Shown: in pieces, positions 23,941 to 43,322 of the stretch
Layout: each line of letters begins with the position of its first letter
Numbering within the stretch: the first letter of the stretch is position 1
Origin: Gammaproteobacteria bacterium
Lineage (GTDB): Bacteria > Pseudomonadota > Gammaproteobacteria > Pseudomonadales > Halieaceae
Assembly: GCA_030428835.1 (NCBI GenBank)
Contig: JAUIEP010000023.1
Location: 1-43,402 of the forward strand
Length of the DNA: 43,402 bases
Reading direction: 5' to 3'
Notes under the pieces: generated by a model
Databases searched by the model: none
Seen by the model: the letters and a program-made list of their open reading frames with translations, nothing else
Told to the model about the DNA's origin: nothing
Program-made: the position numbers and the translations under genes

Positions 23941-26130
23941 ATGAAGCAGTCAGATCGTTGTTACCGGGATGTGTACCACGGCGCACGGATGTTGTTGGTT
24001 GTCGTGCTGGCACTGCTGACCGGCGGGTGCGAACTCTTCGCCTTCGGGCGCAACACGTCGGGCGAGCTGGGTGACGGCACGACGACGAACCGCAGCATCC
24101 CGACGCTCATCCAGGGTTCCTCGTTCGATCTCGTGAGCGGTGGCGGCACGCACAGCTGCGGCCTGCGCTCGGACGGCACCGCCTGGTGCTGGGGTGAGAA
24201 CAACTACGGCCAGTTGGGCGACGGCACCACGGTAGACAAGACGCTGCCGGTGCAGGTGGGCACGGAAACCGACTGGATCGCCATCGAGGCGAGCGCCTTC
24301 CACACCTGCGGCCTGCGCGACCCGGGCACCCTGTGGTGCTGGGGCGGCAACAACTTCGGCCAGATCGGCGACGGTACTACCGCCCTGCGCACGGCGCCGG
24401 TGCAGATCGGCACGGCGACCGACTGGGTGCAGGTGAGTTCGGTGGAGAACCATACCTGCGGCCGGCGCTCCAGTCTCGGCAACTTCACCGCCTGGTGCTG
24501 GGGGCACAACAGTAACGGCGAACTGGGCATCGGCAATACCACGCAGCAGCTCACTCCGTTACAGGTCGGCAGCGAGACCGACTGGCTGGAACTGCGCGCC
24601 GGGCTGAATCACACGTGTGGGGTCCGGGCACTCGGCTTCAGCCGCATCTGGTGCTGGGGCGGCAACCTCAATAGCGAGCTCGGCGACGGCACCACCATCC
24701 AGCGCAACTCGCCCGTGCAAATTGGCAGCGACAACGGCTGGCTGTATGTCAGTCCCGGCAATTTCCACACCTGTGCCCACCGCGTCGACGGGGCGATCTT
24801 CTGTTGGGGCAACAACAGCTCCGGCCAGGTCGGCGACGGCACGAACACCAAGCGGTCCACGCCCGTTCAGGTCGGGACCGCCACGGACTGGGCGGAGGTG
24901 GAGACCGGCAGCAACCATACCTGCGCGCGCCGCACGAACGGCACCGCCTGGTGTTGGGGCATGAATTTCTTTGGCCAGCTCGGCGACGGTACGGCGGTGG
25001 CGCGCAACACGCCGACCAAGGTCAATGACGCGACCAACTGGGCGGGTATCAATGCGGCGGCATTGCACAGTTGCGGTGTGCGCGGCGACGGCAGCACCTG
25101 GTGCTGGGGCGACAATGACAAGGGTGGCGTGGGCGACGGCACCACCGTCCAGCGCAACGCGCCGGTCAATGTCGGCCAGCCGATCGACTGGCGCACCGCC
25201 ACAGCGGGCTTCCGCAACACCTGCGCGGTGGCGCTGGACCGCAGCCTGTGGTGCACCGGTTCCAATGCGCAGGGGCAGCTCGGTAACGGCACCACGGCCG
25301 ACAGCAGTACGTTTGTCAGGGTCGGGTCGGACAACGACTGGGACACGGTGGCCTCGGGCTTCGACCACACCTGTGCCATCCGCACCGACGATACCCTGTG
25401 GTGCTGGGGCGACAACAGCGCCGGCCAGCTCGGGGACGGCACGACCACGCAGCGCCTGACGCCGGTGCAGGTCGGCGGCGACGCCGACTGGCAGTCCGTG
25501 AGCGCCAGTTTCTTCGACCACACCTGCGCCACGCGCACGGGAGGCACCCTCTGGTGCTGGGGCACCAACGTCGGGCCGGGTGGCGTCTCCAGCTACAGCA
25601 CGCCGACGCAGATCGGCAGCGACACGGACTGGCGCCAGGTGAGCAACACGGGGCTGTACGTGTGCGCCACGCGTACGGGCGGCACGCTGTGGTGCTGGGG
25701 CGCCAATGACCAGGGCCAGCTCGGCGACGGGACCACGGATTTCAACCTCACCCCCACGCAGGTGGGTACCGCCACGGACTGGAACAAGGTCAGCACGGGT
25801 ACGGGCCACGCGTGTGCCACGCGCACCAACGGCACGCTGTGGTGCTGGGGCAGCAACGCCTCGGGACAGCTCGGCACCGGGGGAGGTTCTGAACTGTCCC
25901 CGGTGCTGGTGAATCCGGCCACGGACTGGAAGAACCCGGATCTCGGCGCCCTGCATACCTGCGCACTGCGCCTGGACAACAGCCTCTGGTGCTGGGGCAG
26001 CAACGTGTACGGCCAGGTGGGCGTGGCGTCCGGTCCCACGCTTATCCCGCGGGAGGTGGGCACCGCGCGCTCGATGTGGATAGAGGTGTCCGCGGGCGGC
26101 GGCCACACGATCGCACTGCCTTTCGAGTAA
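23941..26130 (+). CDS. Exported RCC1-like repeat protein, 14 beta-propeller units with paired cysteines
   Basis: ATG at 23941; 729 aa. A hydrophobic segment (17-29) ends TGGC (Cys30), a relaxed lipobox, so it may be lipid-anchored. From there to the end it is a series of about 50-residue RCC1-like units, each with HTCGLR followed by GTxWCWGxNxxGQLGDGTT and a spacer ending DW. I count 13 full units with the two-Cys pattern. A fourteenth is split: LFAFGRNTSGELGDG at the N-terminus and GGGHTIALPFE at the C-terminus, and it lacks both Cys. Such splitting is typical of closure of a propeller ring. Fourteen is twice seven, the blade number of RCC1. The paired Cys suggest disulfides, and the role is probably protein or cell-surface binding. 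Confidence 0.85.
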   Translation: MKQSDRCYRDVYHGARMLLVVVLALLTGGCELFAFGRNTSGELGDGTTTNRSIPTLIQGSSFDLVSGGGTHSCGLRSDGTAWCWGENNYGQLGDGTTVDKTLPVQVGTETDWIAIEASAFHTCGLRDPGTLWCWGGNNFGQIGDGTTALRTAPVQIGTATDWVQVSSVENHTCGRRSSLGNFTAWCWGHNSNGELGIGNTTQQLTPLQVGSETDWLELRAGLNHTCGVRALGFSRIWCWGGNLNSELGDGTTIQRNSPVQIGSDNGWLYVSPGNFHTCAHRVDGAIFCWGNNSSGQVGDGTNTKRSTPVQVGTATDWAEVETGSNHTCARRTNGTAWCWGMNFFGQLGDGTAVARNTPTKVNDATNWAGINAAALHSCGVRGDGSTWCWGDNDKGGVGDGTTVQRNAPVNVGQPIDWRTATAGFRNTCAVALDRSLWCTGSNAQGQLGNGTTADSSTFVRVGSDNDWDTVASGFDHTCAIRTDDTLWCWGDNSAGQLGDGTTTQRLTPVQVGGDADWQSVSASFFDHTCATRTGGTLWCWGTNVGPGGVSSYSTPTQIGSDTDWRQVSNTGLYVCATRTGGTLWCWGANDQGQLGDGTTDFNLTPTQVGTATDWNKVSTGTGHACATRTNGTLWCWGSNASGQLGTGGGSELSPVLVNPATDWKNPDLGALHTCALRLDNSLWCWGSNVYGQVGVASGPTLIPREVGTARSMWIEVSAGGGHTIALPFE

Positions 26131-38455: not shown

Positions 38456-38529
38456 TAATATAACCGGCCAGCGACAAGCGTCCAGCTACAGAACTTCGGA
38501 CTACGAACACGCGAGCGGGCCTGAGGAGT

Positions 38530-38637
38530 ATGGGCGCACACCGCCTGCCGGGGGCGTCTGGCGACAGGACGTCGCCAGCCGAGCCTGTACAGGGATGTAC
38601 GCTTTTTGGCGGTCCCCGGCGGGCGGTGTGCGCTCAT
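38530..38637 (+). repeat. 108-bp structured repeat, copy 1
   Basis: The element is closed by 24-base inverted arms (38530-38553 and 38614-38637), which pair throughout with two G-U wobbles on this strand. The core includes a perfect 8-bp hairpin CTGGCGAC-AGGAC-GTCGCCAG, a small GTAC-AGGGAT-GTAC hairpin and a run GCTTTTTGG. Copy 2 at 39681-39788 is the same length and lies on the other strand; the cores are nearly identical, while the arms differ with compensating changes. There is no transposase. It ends 65 bp before the MDR gene. Confidence 0.9.
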
Positions 38638-38702
38638 GCTCCGTTAACCGAGAGCGTTCCGAGTGCAAGAAGAGGCCCAATGGTGAAAAGAAAGGCATAC
38701 CA

Positions 38703-39614
38703 ATGAAGGCAGTAGTACAGGAAGAATACGGCCCCCCGGAGGTCCTGCACCAGGCAGAAGTCGCAACGCCCACGCCGGGCAGCGGTGAACTGCAGATCAA
38801 GGTGGCCGCGGCGGGCGTCAACCCGGCGGACTGCAAATGGCGCGGCGGCCTGCTGCGCCAGTTCCGAGAACTGGAATTCCCCGCCGTGCTCGGCTACGAC
38901 GTGGCGGGCACGGTGAGCGAAACAGGGCCGTCCGTGACCGGCTTCGCGCCCGGCGACCGCGTGGTGGCGATGCTCGACCACGGCATCAGGGCGGGCTACG
39001 CCGAGTACGCCGTGGCTGCGCAGGCCGCGTGCGTGCGCGTGCCGGACGACATGGACCTGGCCCTCGCCGCCGCGATCCCGACACCGGGCCTGACCGGCCT
39101 GCAACTGGTGGCACAATTCATAGCGCCGGTTGCCGGCGACAGGCTGCTGGTGACCGGCGCCTGCGGCTCGGTCGGGCGCTTCGCCGTCCACGCGGCCCGC
39201 GAGCGCGGCGCGCACGTCGTGGCGGCGGTGCGGCCCGAGCAGTGCGACACCGCGCGGTCGCTGGGTGCCGACGAGGTCATCGTCCTGGAAGAGACCTATG
39301 TCGGCGCGCCTTTTGACCACGTCGCCGACACGGTCGGCGGACCTGCCGTGGCGGCGCTGTGCGCGCATGTGCGTGCGGACGGCAGGATTCGCACGGTGGC
39401 GACCGATCCCATCGACCCTGTCGGGTTGCCGTCGCAGCCGGAGTTTGTCGCCCTGCACATGGATGCGGTGCAGTTATCGGCGTTGGTTGCCGCGGTGCAC
39501 GGTGGTCTGATCGATTACAGTGTTGCGCGGCGGGTGTCGCTCGGGAGTGCGGCGGAAGCGCATCGGCTTATGGAGCGGGGTGGCCTGTCGGGCAAGATCG
39601 TCCTTATGCCCTGA
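38703..39614 (+). CDS. MDR family NAD(P)H-dependent reductase (quinone oxidoreductase-like, zinc-free)
   Basis: The ATG at 38703 (MKAVVQEEYG) gives 303 aa, preceded by a GAAAAGAAAGG stretch. GroES-like N-terminal part: GVNPADCKWRGG, ELEFPAVLGYDVAGTVSETG, FAPGDRVVAML. Rossmann part: DRLLVTGACGSVGRFAVHAARERGA, with GSVG binding NADPH. No Cys cluster or His-Glu catalytic zinc site is seen, so it belongs to the zinc-independent quinone reductase/enoyl reductase group. It probably reduces an alpha,beta-unsaturated carbonyl. It is flanked symmetrically by the two structured repeats. Confidence 0.9.
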   Translation: MKAVVQEEYGPPEVLHQAEVATPTPGSGELQIKVAAAGVNPADCKWRGGLLRQFRELEFPAVLGYDVAGTVSETGPSVTGFAPGDRVVAMLDHGIRAGYAEYAVAAQAACVRVPDDMDLALAAAIPTPGLTGLQLVAQFIAPVAGDRLLVTGACGSVGRFAVHAARERGAHVVAAVRPEQCDTARSLGADEVIVLEETYVGAPFDHVADTVGGPAVAALCAHVRADGRIRTVATDPIDPVGLPSQPEFVALHMDAVQLSALVAAVHGGLIDYSVARRVSLGSAAEAHRLMERGGLSGKIVLMP

Positions 39615-39680
39615 GTTGCACCAAACTACTTTCGCTGTTCCTTGCTACTGCAGTCTTCACAGGTCTTTGGCAATCGGCAC

Positions 39681-39788
39681 ATGAGCCTGTACCGGCTACC
39701 GGGGACCGCCAAAAAGCGTACGTCCCTGTACAGGCTCGGCTGGCGACGTCCTGTCGCCAGACGCCCCCGGTAGCCGGTACAGGCCCAT
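39681..39788 (-). repeat. 108-bp structured repeat, copy 2 (inverted relative to copy 1)
   Basis: On the + strand it starts ATGAGCCTGTACCGGCTA and ends with the inverted arm, TAGCCGGTACAGGCCCAT. Between them lies a core that matches copy 1 read on the opposite strand except for one base (GTACGTCC here, GTACATCC there). The variable 12-base arms differ from copy 1 at seven left-arm positions and remain paired. It starts 66 bp after the MDR stop. The 306-bp gap between the MDR and TetR genes otherwise holds only the inverted repeat at 39865-39900. Confidence 0.9.
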
Positions 39789-39864
39789 GCGCCTCGGTCA
39801 GCTCTGTGAATCTCACAAGACAACGATCCCCGGCTCTTTATCTGTTCATTGCAGCACCTGTGGA

Positions 39865-43221: not shown

Positions 43222-43254
43222 GGACGTGGTTGCACGGTTGCCGGCCGCACACCT

Positions 43255-43322
43255 CCCGACCGAGCGCGGCCCGACCGAACGCGGCCCGACCGAACGCGGC
43301 CCGACCGAACGCGGCCCGACCG
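43255..43322 (+). repeat. 15-bp tandem repeat, four copies plus a partial
   Basis: The unit CCCGACCGAACGCGG is repeated at 43255, 43270, 43285 and 43300, and a partial unit (CCCGACCG) ends at 43322. The first copy has GAG in place of GAA. It lies 33 bp after the TonB receptor stop and is outside any supported gene. It is too short and unspaced for a CRISPR array. The 181 bp after the receptor hold nothing else I can support. Confidence 0.9.

What the first reader, a model, noticed from the sequence alone, without database searches (positions are those of the whole stretch)
38530..39788. Two inverted 108-bp structured elements with compensatory stem changes around the MDR gene
Read in the same orientation, both elements run ATGAGC, a variable 12-base arm, a common core, the complementary 12-base arm and GCCCAT. 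The arms are CTGTACCGGCTA/TAGCCGGTACAG in copy 2 and GCACACCGCCCG/CAGGCGGTGTGC in copy 1. Of seven changed left-arm positions, six are matched by the complementary change in the right arm (for example C-G to G-C, T-A to C-G, G-C to A-T). The core differs at one base. Loss of sequence with preserved pairing indicates selection for a fold, as RNA or as single-stranded DNA. The leftover mismatches are A-C in one orientation and G-U in the other, so the transcribed strand, if any, is + for copy 1 and - for copy 2, both pointing toward the MDR gene. Spacing to that gene is 65 and 66 bp. It may be a structured mobile element such as a REP/MITE or a new RNA family.
Basis: seen in the sequence. Interest (0 to 1): 0.85.

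Follow-up and report, generated by a model that had tools for sequence, protein, structure and literature searches.

The report
Scattered mobile RNA elements, likely CsrA-binding
Two matching folded elements beside a dehydrogenase gene belong to a family of dozens of copies in this marine bacterium, a new branch of a known RNA family (TwoAYGGAY) that appears to spread like a small transposon, and the copies keep an RNA-like fold and two loops expected to bind the regulator CsrA.

Summary
The two elements belong to a dispersed family: 34 matched places in this genome, three of them pieces of interrupted copies, and model matches in 25 of 57 genomes searched, own included.

The fold is strongly supported: 97.2% of cells paired against 69.1% in shuffles, and 37 of 44 pairs with changes on both sides. 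One strand folds: arm mispairs are G-U 92 against A-C 4. On that strand two CA(N)GGA(N)G motifs, the CsrA/RsmA site, occur in 109 of 110 and 47 of 56 aligned copies.

It is not a new RNA family: siblings in this genome reach the gathering score of Rfam TwoAYGGAY, RF01731, proposed in 2014 to bind CsrA. What seems new is dispersal as a MITE-like unit with inverted ends and 8-bp target duplications, shown in kin, not in the window's own subfamily. There the outer ends decayed while arms stayed paired and the core constant. No RAYT link and no promoter of its own were found. Expression and CsrA binding are untested. The dehydrogenase gene looks incidental.

The parts
38523..38643 (+). Copy 1, whole element (folding strand +)
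   Evidence: 121-nt match to other copies; fold; R1 hit 38527-38639, 123.6 bits
38525..38553 (+). copy 1 left arm of the long outer stem (variable, covarying)
38559..38577 (+). copy 1 hairpin 1, loop CAGGACG (38565-38571), CsrA-type site
38578..38585 (+). copy 1 conserved linker GCCGAGCC between the hairpins
   Evidence: (near-invariant GAGC)
38586..38601 (+). copy 1 hairpin 2, loop CAGGGATG (38590-38597), CsrA-type site (GUACAGGGAUGU fits SELEX consensus RUACARGGAUGU)
38601..38610 (+). copy 1 near-invariant GCTTTTTGGC
38614..38642 (+). copy 1 right arm of the outer stem
39675..39795 (-). Copy 2, whole element (folding strand -)
   Evidence: fold; R1 hit 39679-39791, 122.2 bits
39765..39793 (-). 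copy 2 5' arm of the outer stem (on the folding strand)
39741..39759 (-). copy 2 hairpin 1, loop CAGGACG (39747-39753)
39717..39732 (-). copy 2 hairpin 2, loop CAGGGACG (39721-39728)
39708..39717 (-). copy 2 near-invariant GCTTTTTGGC
39676..39704 (-). copy 2 3' arm of the outer stem
38703..39614 (+). neighbour, not part of the element: zinc-binding dehydrogenase (medium-chain dehydrogenase/reductase)
   Evidence: Pfam ADH_N, ADH_zinc_N_2

Best explanation
The two elements are members of a dispersed, MITE-like repeat family whose cargo is an RNA of the TwoAYGGAY type: a long outer stem carrying two short hairpins, each presenting a CsrA/RsmA site in its loop, the two GGAs 23 nt apart in copy 1, a spacing that one CsrA dimer can bridge. 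The units were spread by a cut-and-paste (DDE-type) transposase supplied from elsewhere. After insertion each copy kept the cargo, and drift took the outer ends. The most likely working is that whenever transcription runs through a copy on the folding strand, the RNA snaps into this structure and captures a CsrA dimer. That either lowers free CsrA (a distributed decoy) or marks the carrier transcript for CsrA-dependent control. Shown: copy number, fold, covariation, strand, loop motif, target duplications in kin, and constraint on core and arms but not on the frame in one kin genome. Inferred: transcription, CsrA binding, decoy or cis effect, the kind of transposase, and that the window's own subfamily spread in the same way as its kin.
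For: Fold: A1 (50 rows): cells paired 97.2% against 69.1% shuffled; covariation score 0.694 against 0.153, and 0.075-0.099 for slid partners. Strand: arm mispairs G-U 92 against A-C 4 of 2640 cells (A2, 110 rows) and 55 against 9 (A3, 56 rows); the outer frame in G016 gives 45 against 69, so the bias belongs to the fold. Motif: two CA(N)GGA(N)G motifs in 109 of 110 and 47 of 56 rows, median GGA-GGA gap 23 and 21 nt; the CsrA review gives RUACARGGAUGU, an ANGGAN hexaloop and bridging of sites >=10 to <=63 nt apart (PMC7652899, passages). CsrA: a csrA gene over the Pfam cut-off in this genome, and csrA in 47 of 47 genomes at least 90% complete. Family: RF01731 at 43.0 and 47.4 bits (gathering 43) for siblings in this genome. 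Mobility: 11 of 41 G016+G002 copies have 8-mers at least 7/8 identical exactly at the repeat ends, unrelated offsets at most 2. Constraint: G016, 31 copies: frame 31% divergence per site and 62% paired; arms 19% and 98.8%, with 170 compensated doubles against 11 single-side changes; core 2.6%. Placement: 0 of 72 copies inside a gene by a home-made codon-usage caller; 400 kb of G016 is 86% coding by the same caller.
Against: Orientation to neighbouring genes is neutral (17 sense, 19 antisense in tandem contexts), and the strand-specific G-U excess is equally present in antisense copies (13 against 0). No promoter-like signal favours the folding strand: 12 against 15, 9 against 8 and, in sense tandem contexts, 2 against 14, the wrong way (crude score, 61 of 72 copies). 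So it is not shown how antisense copies would ever be transcribed. No target duplication was found in the window's own subfamily (2 of 29, control 1.5). The window's two copies do not match RF01731, and a 90%-identical sibling (C285, L004) reaches only 40.2 of 43 bits. csrA was not found in G002 (89% complete, 30 model matches) nor in G025 (66% complete, 1 match). 1 of 110 and 9 of 56 rows keep only one motif.
Confidence: 0.6

Rival explanations
1. The folded molecule is single-stranded DNA or a cruciform: a hairpin read by a transposase, nuclease or nucleoid protein. RNA and CsrA play no part and the loop motif is a protein-DNA signal.
For: Orientation to genes is neutral; antisense copies keep the same strand bias; no own promoter seen. 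In G040 and G054 all 13 close pairs are divergent, a BIME-like layout, although G023 has a convergent pair (L142) and the window pair is convergent. An IS110 transposon has hit the core twice at the same base, as REPs are hit (PMC1525189 seen in listing only).
Against: In kin the repeats have 8-bp target duplications and terminal inverted repeats, the mark of double-strand DDE transposition, not of the Y1/HUH single-strand kind (recalled). No element lies in 8 Y1_Tnp loci. The loop consensus, with its free N and near-fixed Y, matches the published CsrA site, which a DNA reader would not explain.
Confidence: 0.15
2. The arms co-vary by mutation, not selection: quasi-palindrome correction or template switching copies one arm onto the other, and gene conversion between copies keeps the core uniform.
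For: The middle arm pairs are almost perfectly Watson-Crick while very variable in sequence (pairs 9-17: no A-C, 0-3 G-T of 110). Cores are uniform within a genome (2.6%). The core appears inverted relative to its frame in some copies, e.g. L099 against L100.
Against: Correction has no preferred strand, yet residual mispairs are 92 G-U to 4 A-C, while the frame shows 45 to 69. By eye, arms change stepwise in lineages. The core is also kept between genera, with compensated hairpin changes.
Confidence: 0.1
3. A transcribed hairpin that acts in the neighbouring mRNA as a terminator, RNase III site or stabiliser, without CsrA.
For: Very stable stem of about 30 bp in intergenic regions, often near gene starts. 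Neisserial Correia elements are cut by RNase III in this way (review PMC10969869, passages).
Against: Such roles need a stem, not two nearly invariant GGA loops at fixed spacing, and would favour sense orientation, which is not seen.
Confidence: 0.13

Closest known systems
TwoAYGGAY RNA (Rfam RF01731, clan CL00106)
   Same: Same architecture: outer stem, two hairpins with GGA loops, conserved linker and GGCG-type closing side. Siblings in the same genome and kin reach the gathering score. CsrA binding already proposed (PMC4333381, passages).
   Different: Window copies give no match. Loop 1 is often CAGGACG rather than CAYGGAYG. Here dispersed in dozens of copies, with transposon ends in kin; the passages I saw treat the family as an RNA or sRNA and do not speak of copies or mobility.
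CsrB/CsrC, RsmX/Y/Z CsrA-sequestering sRNAs
   Same: GGA sites in hairpin loops, in multiples, expected to bind CsrA dimers (PMC7652899, passages).
   Different: Those are one or a few loci with many sites each and own promoters (partly recalled); these are many loci with two sites each and no visible promoter.
Bacterial MITEs (e.g. QMITE, Correia, ERIC)
   Same: Short, non-coding, terminal inverted repeats, direct repeats at the ends, intergenic, many copies (review PMC10969869, passages).
   Different: Here the terminal repeats decay while an inner structured core is kept on one strand.
REP/BIME elements with RAYT
   Same: Palindromic, intergenic, often in inverted pairs; hit by an IS110-family element.
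   Different: No RAYT association seen; target duplications in kin.

Membership tests
TwoAYGGAY RF01731 | covariance-model score at or above 43 bits | tested here: inconclusive
   Window copies: no match. Same-genome sibling of the same subfamily L170 (C267): 43.0; another sibling L004 (C285) 40.2; another subfamily L176 (C262): 47.4. Kin L151 44.9 and 43.2, L146 43.5, L135 41.6.
TwoAYGGAY RF01731 | two hairpins with GGA loops inside one outer stem | tested here: met
CsrA-binding RNA | ANGGAN-type loop closed by C-G, two sites >=10 to <=63 nt apart | tested here: met
   C-G closing pair invariant 50 of 50 in both hairpins of A1; gap median 23 and 21 nt, range 20-61; rule from PMC7652899
CsrA-binding RNA | binds CsrA | not testable with these tools
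   needs a gel-shift or CLIP-seq
CsrB/Rsm-type sponge sRNA | own promoter, expressed as an sRNA | tested here: inconclusive
   No promoter-like signal into the folding strand (crude sigma-70 score, 61 of 72 copies); no RNA-seq
MITE (kin subfamily, G016+G002) | terminal inverted repeats and target-site duplication | tested here: met
   Repeat GGTAGTGGCTCAGTTTGAAAT and 8-bp duplications in 11 of 41 copies, one of them (L101) palindromic and so ambiguous
MITE (the window's own subfamily, G000) | terminal inverted repeats and target-site duplication | tested here: inconclusive
   No duplication above control (2 of 29, control 1.5); the kin repeat is absent from G000 (0 matches)
MITE | autonomous partner with the same ends | tested here: inconclusive
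   Pattern with up to 3 mismatches in 4 genomes: no transposon-sized pair among the listed places except the two ends of a two-element stretch in G016 C12. Of 18 short regions fetched, 9 show both repeats at 17 or more of 21 letters, 91-241 bp apart. A partner with more diverged ends would be missed
REP/RAYT | Y1 transposase gene flanked by the repeat | tested here: not met
   0 of 8 Y1_Tnp loci (about 1.5 kb either side); own RAYT has another repeat

The most novel reading that the evidence does not exclude
A transposon-built CsrA network: a MITE family carrying a ready-made two-site CsrA-binding RNA (TwoAYGGAY) seeded dozens of intergenic sites, and nearly every copy was then kept by selection on one strand. 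The cell's free CsrA would thus be set by the summed transcription of dozens of scattered decoys, and TwoAYGGAY as a whole would be a domesticated mobile RNA rather than an ordinary sRNA or riboswitch candidate.
Probability: 0.33. Interest if true: 0.8.

Novelty: new variant of a known kind. Interest (0 to 1): 0.62.

Why it matters
TwoAYGGAY was listed in 2010 and was still called a family of unknown function in 2014 (passages). Finding it as a high-copy element, with transposon ends in kin whose decay can be set against the preserved core copy by copy, gives an internal control that separates function from hitch-hiking. It also makes the CsrA hypothesis testable genome-wide. If true, mobile DNA has wired a global post-transcriptional regulator into dozens of loci.

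Tried and rejected
REP/RAYT origin: the single Y1_Tnp gene found in G000 (L064) carries another repeat and no element, and 7 further loci in 6 of 8 kin genomes searched have none.

Unit centred on the MDR gene: rejected, because other copies have other neighbours and G016 lacks copy 2 between its MDR and TetR homologues.

Arms as fresh random sequence at each insertion: considered because G016 arms look random, but by eye they change stepwise in lineages, and at the orthologous place L057/L058 the flanking intergenic DNA is also strongly diverged. I dropped a claim of hypermutation.

Own promoter: no signal; in sense tandem contexts the score even favours the other side, 14 to 2. Conserved flanks in G000: only weak consensus letters for about 15 nt beyond the ends.

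Placement bias: divergent intergenic 28, convergent 4, tandem 36, undetermined 4 of 72, against 14.2, 6.9 and 32.5 kb of such space in 400 kb of G016. Suggestive only; it differs between genomes (G002: none divergent of 10).

Rfam miRNA-named hits lie far below their gathering scores and were read as generic long hairpins.

A literature search for MITE, hairpin and small RNA terms returned nothing.

Rows dropped before counting: A1 used 27 of 31 G000 and 23 of 28 kin stretches, leaving out rows with insertions or poor alignment. A2 lost 4 of 114 and A3 3 of 59 rows (antisense or partial hits of the same elements). G016 statistics used 31 copies, where the model search gave 66 matches, its scoring cap. 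One search used 66 of 72 classified copies, and one search used 61 of 72. Counts of matches per genome are bounds: one search scored 40 of 63 candidates, at most 66 per genome, at most 7, and model matches can include antisense folds of the same element (seen).

Full report
WHAT IS THERE. The two elements head the list of inverted repeats in the window (121 nt, 85%) and fold far better than shuffles (z -8.6 to -10.4).

A FAMILY, NOT A PAIR. A DNA search of the window's own genome (5.23 Mb, 319 contigs) gives 36 matches; two are the arms of copy 1 read backwards, leaving 34 places, of which three (C255 twice, C118) are pieces of interrupted copies. The flanks differ from copy to copy, except that L028 and L032 share a left flank. 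The covariance model R1, built from 50 copies, gives 44 matches here (possibly with some antisense folds) and matches in 25 of 57 genomes, own included, among them five other families of the order with 2, 29, 3, 11 and 28 matches. The core pattern in GTDB genomes hits Halioglobus, Seongchinamella, Mangrovimicrobium, Parahaliea and gammaproteobacterial MAGs without genus (86 stretches, 80 listed; the window's own genome may be left out there). The two named species looked up are Halieaceae. By equal contig lengths, G023 is Mangrovimicrobium sediminis, G031 Parahaliea aestuarii, G002 Halioglobus sp. HKST-UBA220, G001 Halioglobus japonicus BC5_1, and G016 the MAG 7_bin.18.

THE FOLD IS REAL AND ONE STRAND FOLDS. 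On alignment A1, 97.2% of 2187 cells are paired against 69.1% in shuffles; 37 of 44 pairs have changes on both sides, 527 cells against 125.7, and sliding the partners destroys the signal. In the arms the leftover mispairs are G-U in 92 cells and A-C in 4 (110 rows, kin and own), and 55 against 9 in more distant rows (56 rows). Cells are not independent events, but the control below shows no such skew. The folding strand is + for copy 1 and - for copy 2.

THE LOOPS. On that strand two CA(N)GGA(N)G motifs, with the N free (A, C, G, T or absent) and the base after GGA nearly always C or T, occur in 109 of 110 and 47 of 56 rows, the GGAs separated by a median of 23 and 21 nt. The closing C-G pair is invariant in both hairpins of A1 (50 of 50). 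The review PMC7652899 (passages) gives the CsrA SELEX consensus RUACARGGAUGU, the ANGGAN hexaloop, and bridging of two sites 10 to 63 nt apart. Copy 1 hairpin 2 reads GUACAGGGAUGU. The genome has two csrA-family matches, one a standard csrA beside a gene that I recognise from memory as an aspartokinase. csrA is found in 53 of 57 genomes and in all 47 well-completed ones, but not in G002 (89% complete, 30 model matches) or G025 (66% complete, 1 match). Since nearly all have it, co-occurrence is weak evidence.

THE KNOWN FAMILY. Rfam RF01731 TwoAYGGAY fails on the window copies but reaches its gathering score in a sibling of the same subfamily in the same genome (L170, 43.0 bits) and in another subfamily there (L176, 47.4 bits, with a divergent neighbour at 39.9), and in kin (44.9, 43.5 and 43.2); other siblings fall short (40.2 and less). 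In a sample of 377 genomes of the class, 26 hold a match at E <= 0.001, 16 over the cut-off, and in 10 of them 6 or 7 of the at most 7 candidates scored match, so many copies per genome may be usual for this family. The 2010 paper lists it as a probable RNA and probably not cis-regulatory (PMC2864571, table passage), although Rfam types it Cis-reg. A 2014 paper notes CsrA-motif matches and tandem G-A pairs and proposes CsrA binding (PMC4333381, passages). Paper searches for the name, and for CsrA together with repeat, REP, MITE or sponge terms, listed no work that by title or start of abstract describes it as a dispersed or mobile repeat. Of the 7 papers that hold the name (5 listed) I saw passages of four. 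That is a statement about those searches of one open-access library only.

IT SPREAD LIKE A SMALL TRANSPOSON. In G016 and G002 the element sits inside a longer frame ending in GGTAGTGGCTCAGTTTGAAAT inverted repeats. Scanning all offsets, 8-mers at exactly the repeat ends are at least 7/8 identical in 11 of 41 copies; offsets not sliding along this same peak give at most 2, and a jittered control averages 1.7 (max 6) against 13 observed. So an 8-bp target duplication is shown for that subfamily. In G000 none was found (2 of 29, control 1.5) and the kin repeat is absent. No longer element with the same ends was noticed. One orthologous site (L097 in G016, L127 in G002) carries the unit in opposite orientations with the same duplication.

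THE CARGO WAS KEPT AFTERWARDS. In 31 G016 copies the frame has diverged 31% per site and its two sides no longer match well (62% paired; G-T 45, A-C 69). The arms have diverged 19% per site yet pair at 98.8%, with 170 compensated double changes and 11 single-side changes. The core has diverged 2.6% (46 changes in 1767 letters; 16 of them at the free N and Y of the second loop). Same copies, so presumably the same age: the ends rot while the fold stays. One search shows the same between species: L057 and L058 lie at one orthologous place with arms of different sequence, each self-complementary, and similar cores.

PLACE AND ORIENTATION. Of 72 copies in G000, G016 and G002, none lies in a gene predicted by a home-made caller: 28 are between divergent genes, 4 convergent, 17 tandem sense, 19 tandem antisense, 4 undetermined. 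Antisense copies show the same G-U skew (13 to 0), and no promoter-like signal favours the folding strand. This is the main unexplained point. Either antisense or divergent transcription from nearby promoters makes the RNA, or the fold matters as DNA.

THE WINDOW PAIR. In G016 the MFS homologue (82% DNA identity) has an element upstream, as copy 1 here. The MDR (68%) and TetR (79%) homologues lie about 4 kb further on with no element between them. The symmetric spacing around the MDR gene is therefore most likely coincidence.

VERDICT. A real, strongly constrained, dispersed structured element; a new branch of a known RNA family, with transposon ends shown in kin. A CsrA-binding RNA is the best reading (0.6). 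It is unproved at the level of expression and binding.

Noticed in passing
L162 854-1804 (G000 C255); junctions in L032, L033, L034: An IS110-family transposon (Pfam DEDD_Tnp_IS110, Transposase_20) has entered the element core; two left halves (L032, L034) share the identical junction GCCAGCCGAG|ATTCTATG. Arms suggest that halves have been exchanged: L034-left pairs with L033-right (26 of 28, the other two G-U) and L032-left does not (18 of 28) - IS recombination or misassembly.
   Followed up: partly
G040 and G054 (coordinates); L176 in G000; L142 in G023: In other genera elements often come as divergent pairs: 8 of 8 close pairs in G040 and 5 of 5 in G054 are - then +, 33-118 nt apart; the pairs read out have different arms. 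One pair in G023 (L142) is convergent.
   Followed up: partly
L206-L210, L216, L217, L222; L027, L029-L031: Variant copies have an extra stem around hairpin 2 or an enlarged hairpin-1 loop; some frames (L211, L212) have lost the core.
   Followed up: partly
L099 and L109 against L100 (G016): The core is flipped relative to the asymmetric outer frame in a few copies, as if inverted through its arms.
   Followed up: no
window 24144-26021: Tandem protein-like repeats of about 150 nt (10 copies in the largest family); ARAGORN calls a tRNA-Thr inside them at 25764-25835 on the - strand, probably false.
   Followed up: no
window 43241-43322: 15-bp tandem repeat, 4 copies of CCGACCGAACGCGGC type just after the TonB receptor gene.
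   Followed up: no
L064 (G000 C105): A Y1_Tnp gene with its own AAGGGGTCAGAGCCC repeats on both sides, an apparently separate REP system.
   Followed up: partly
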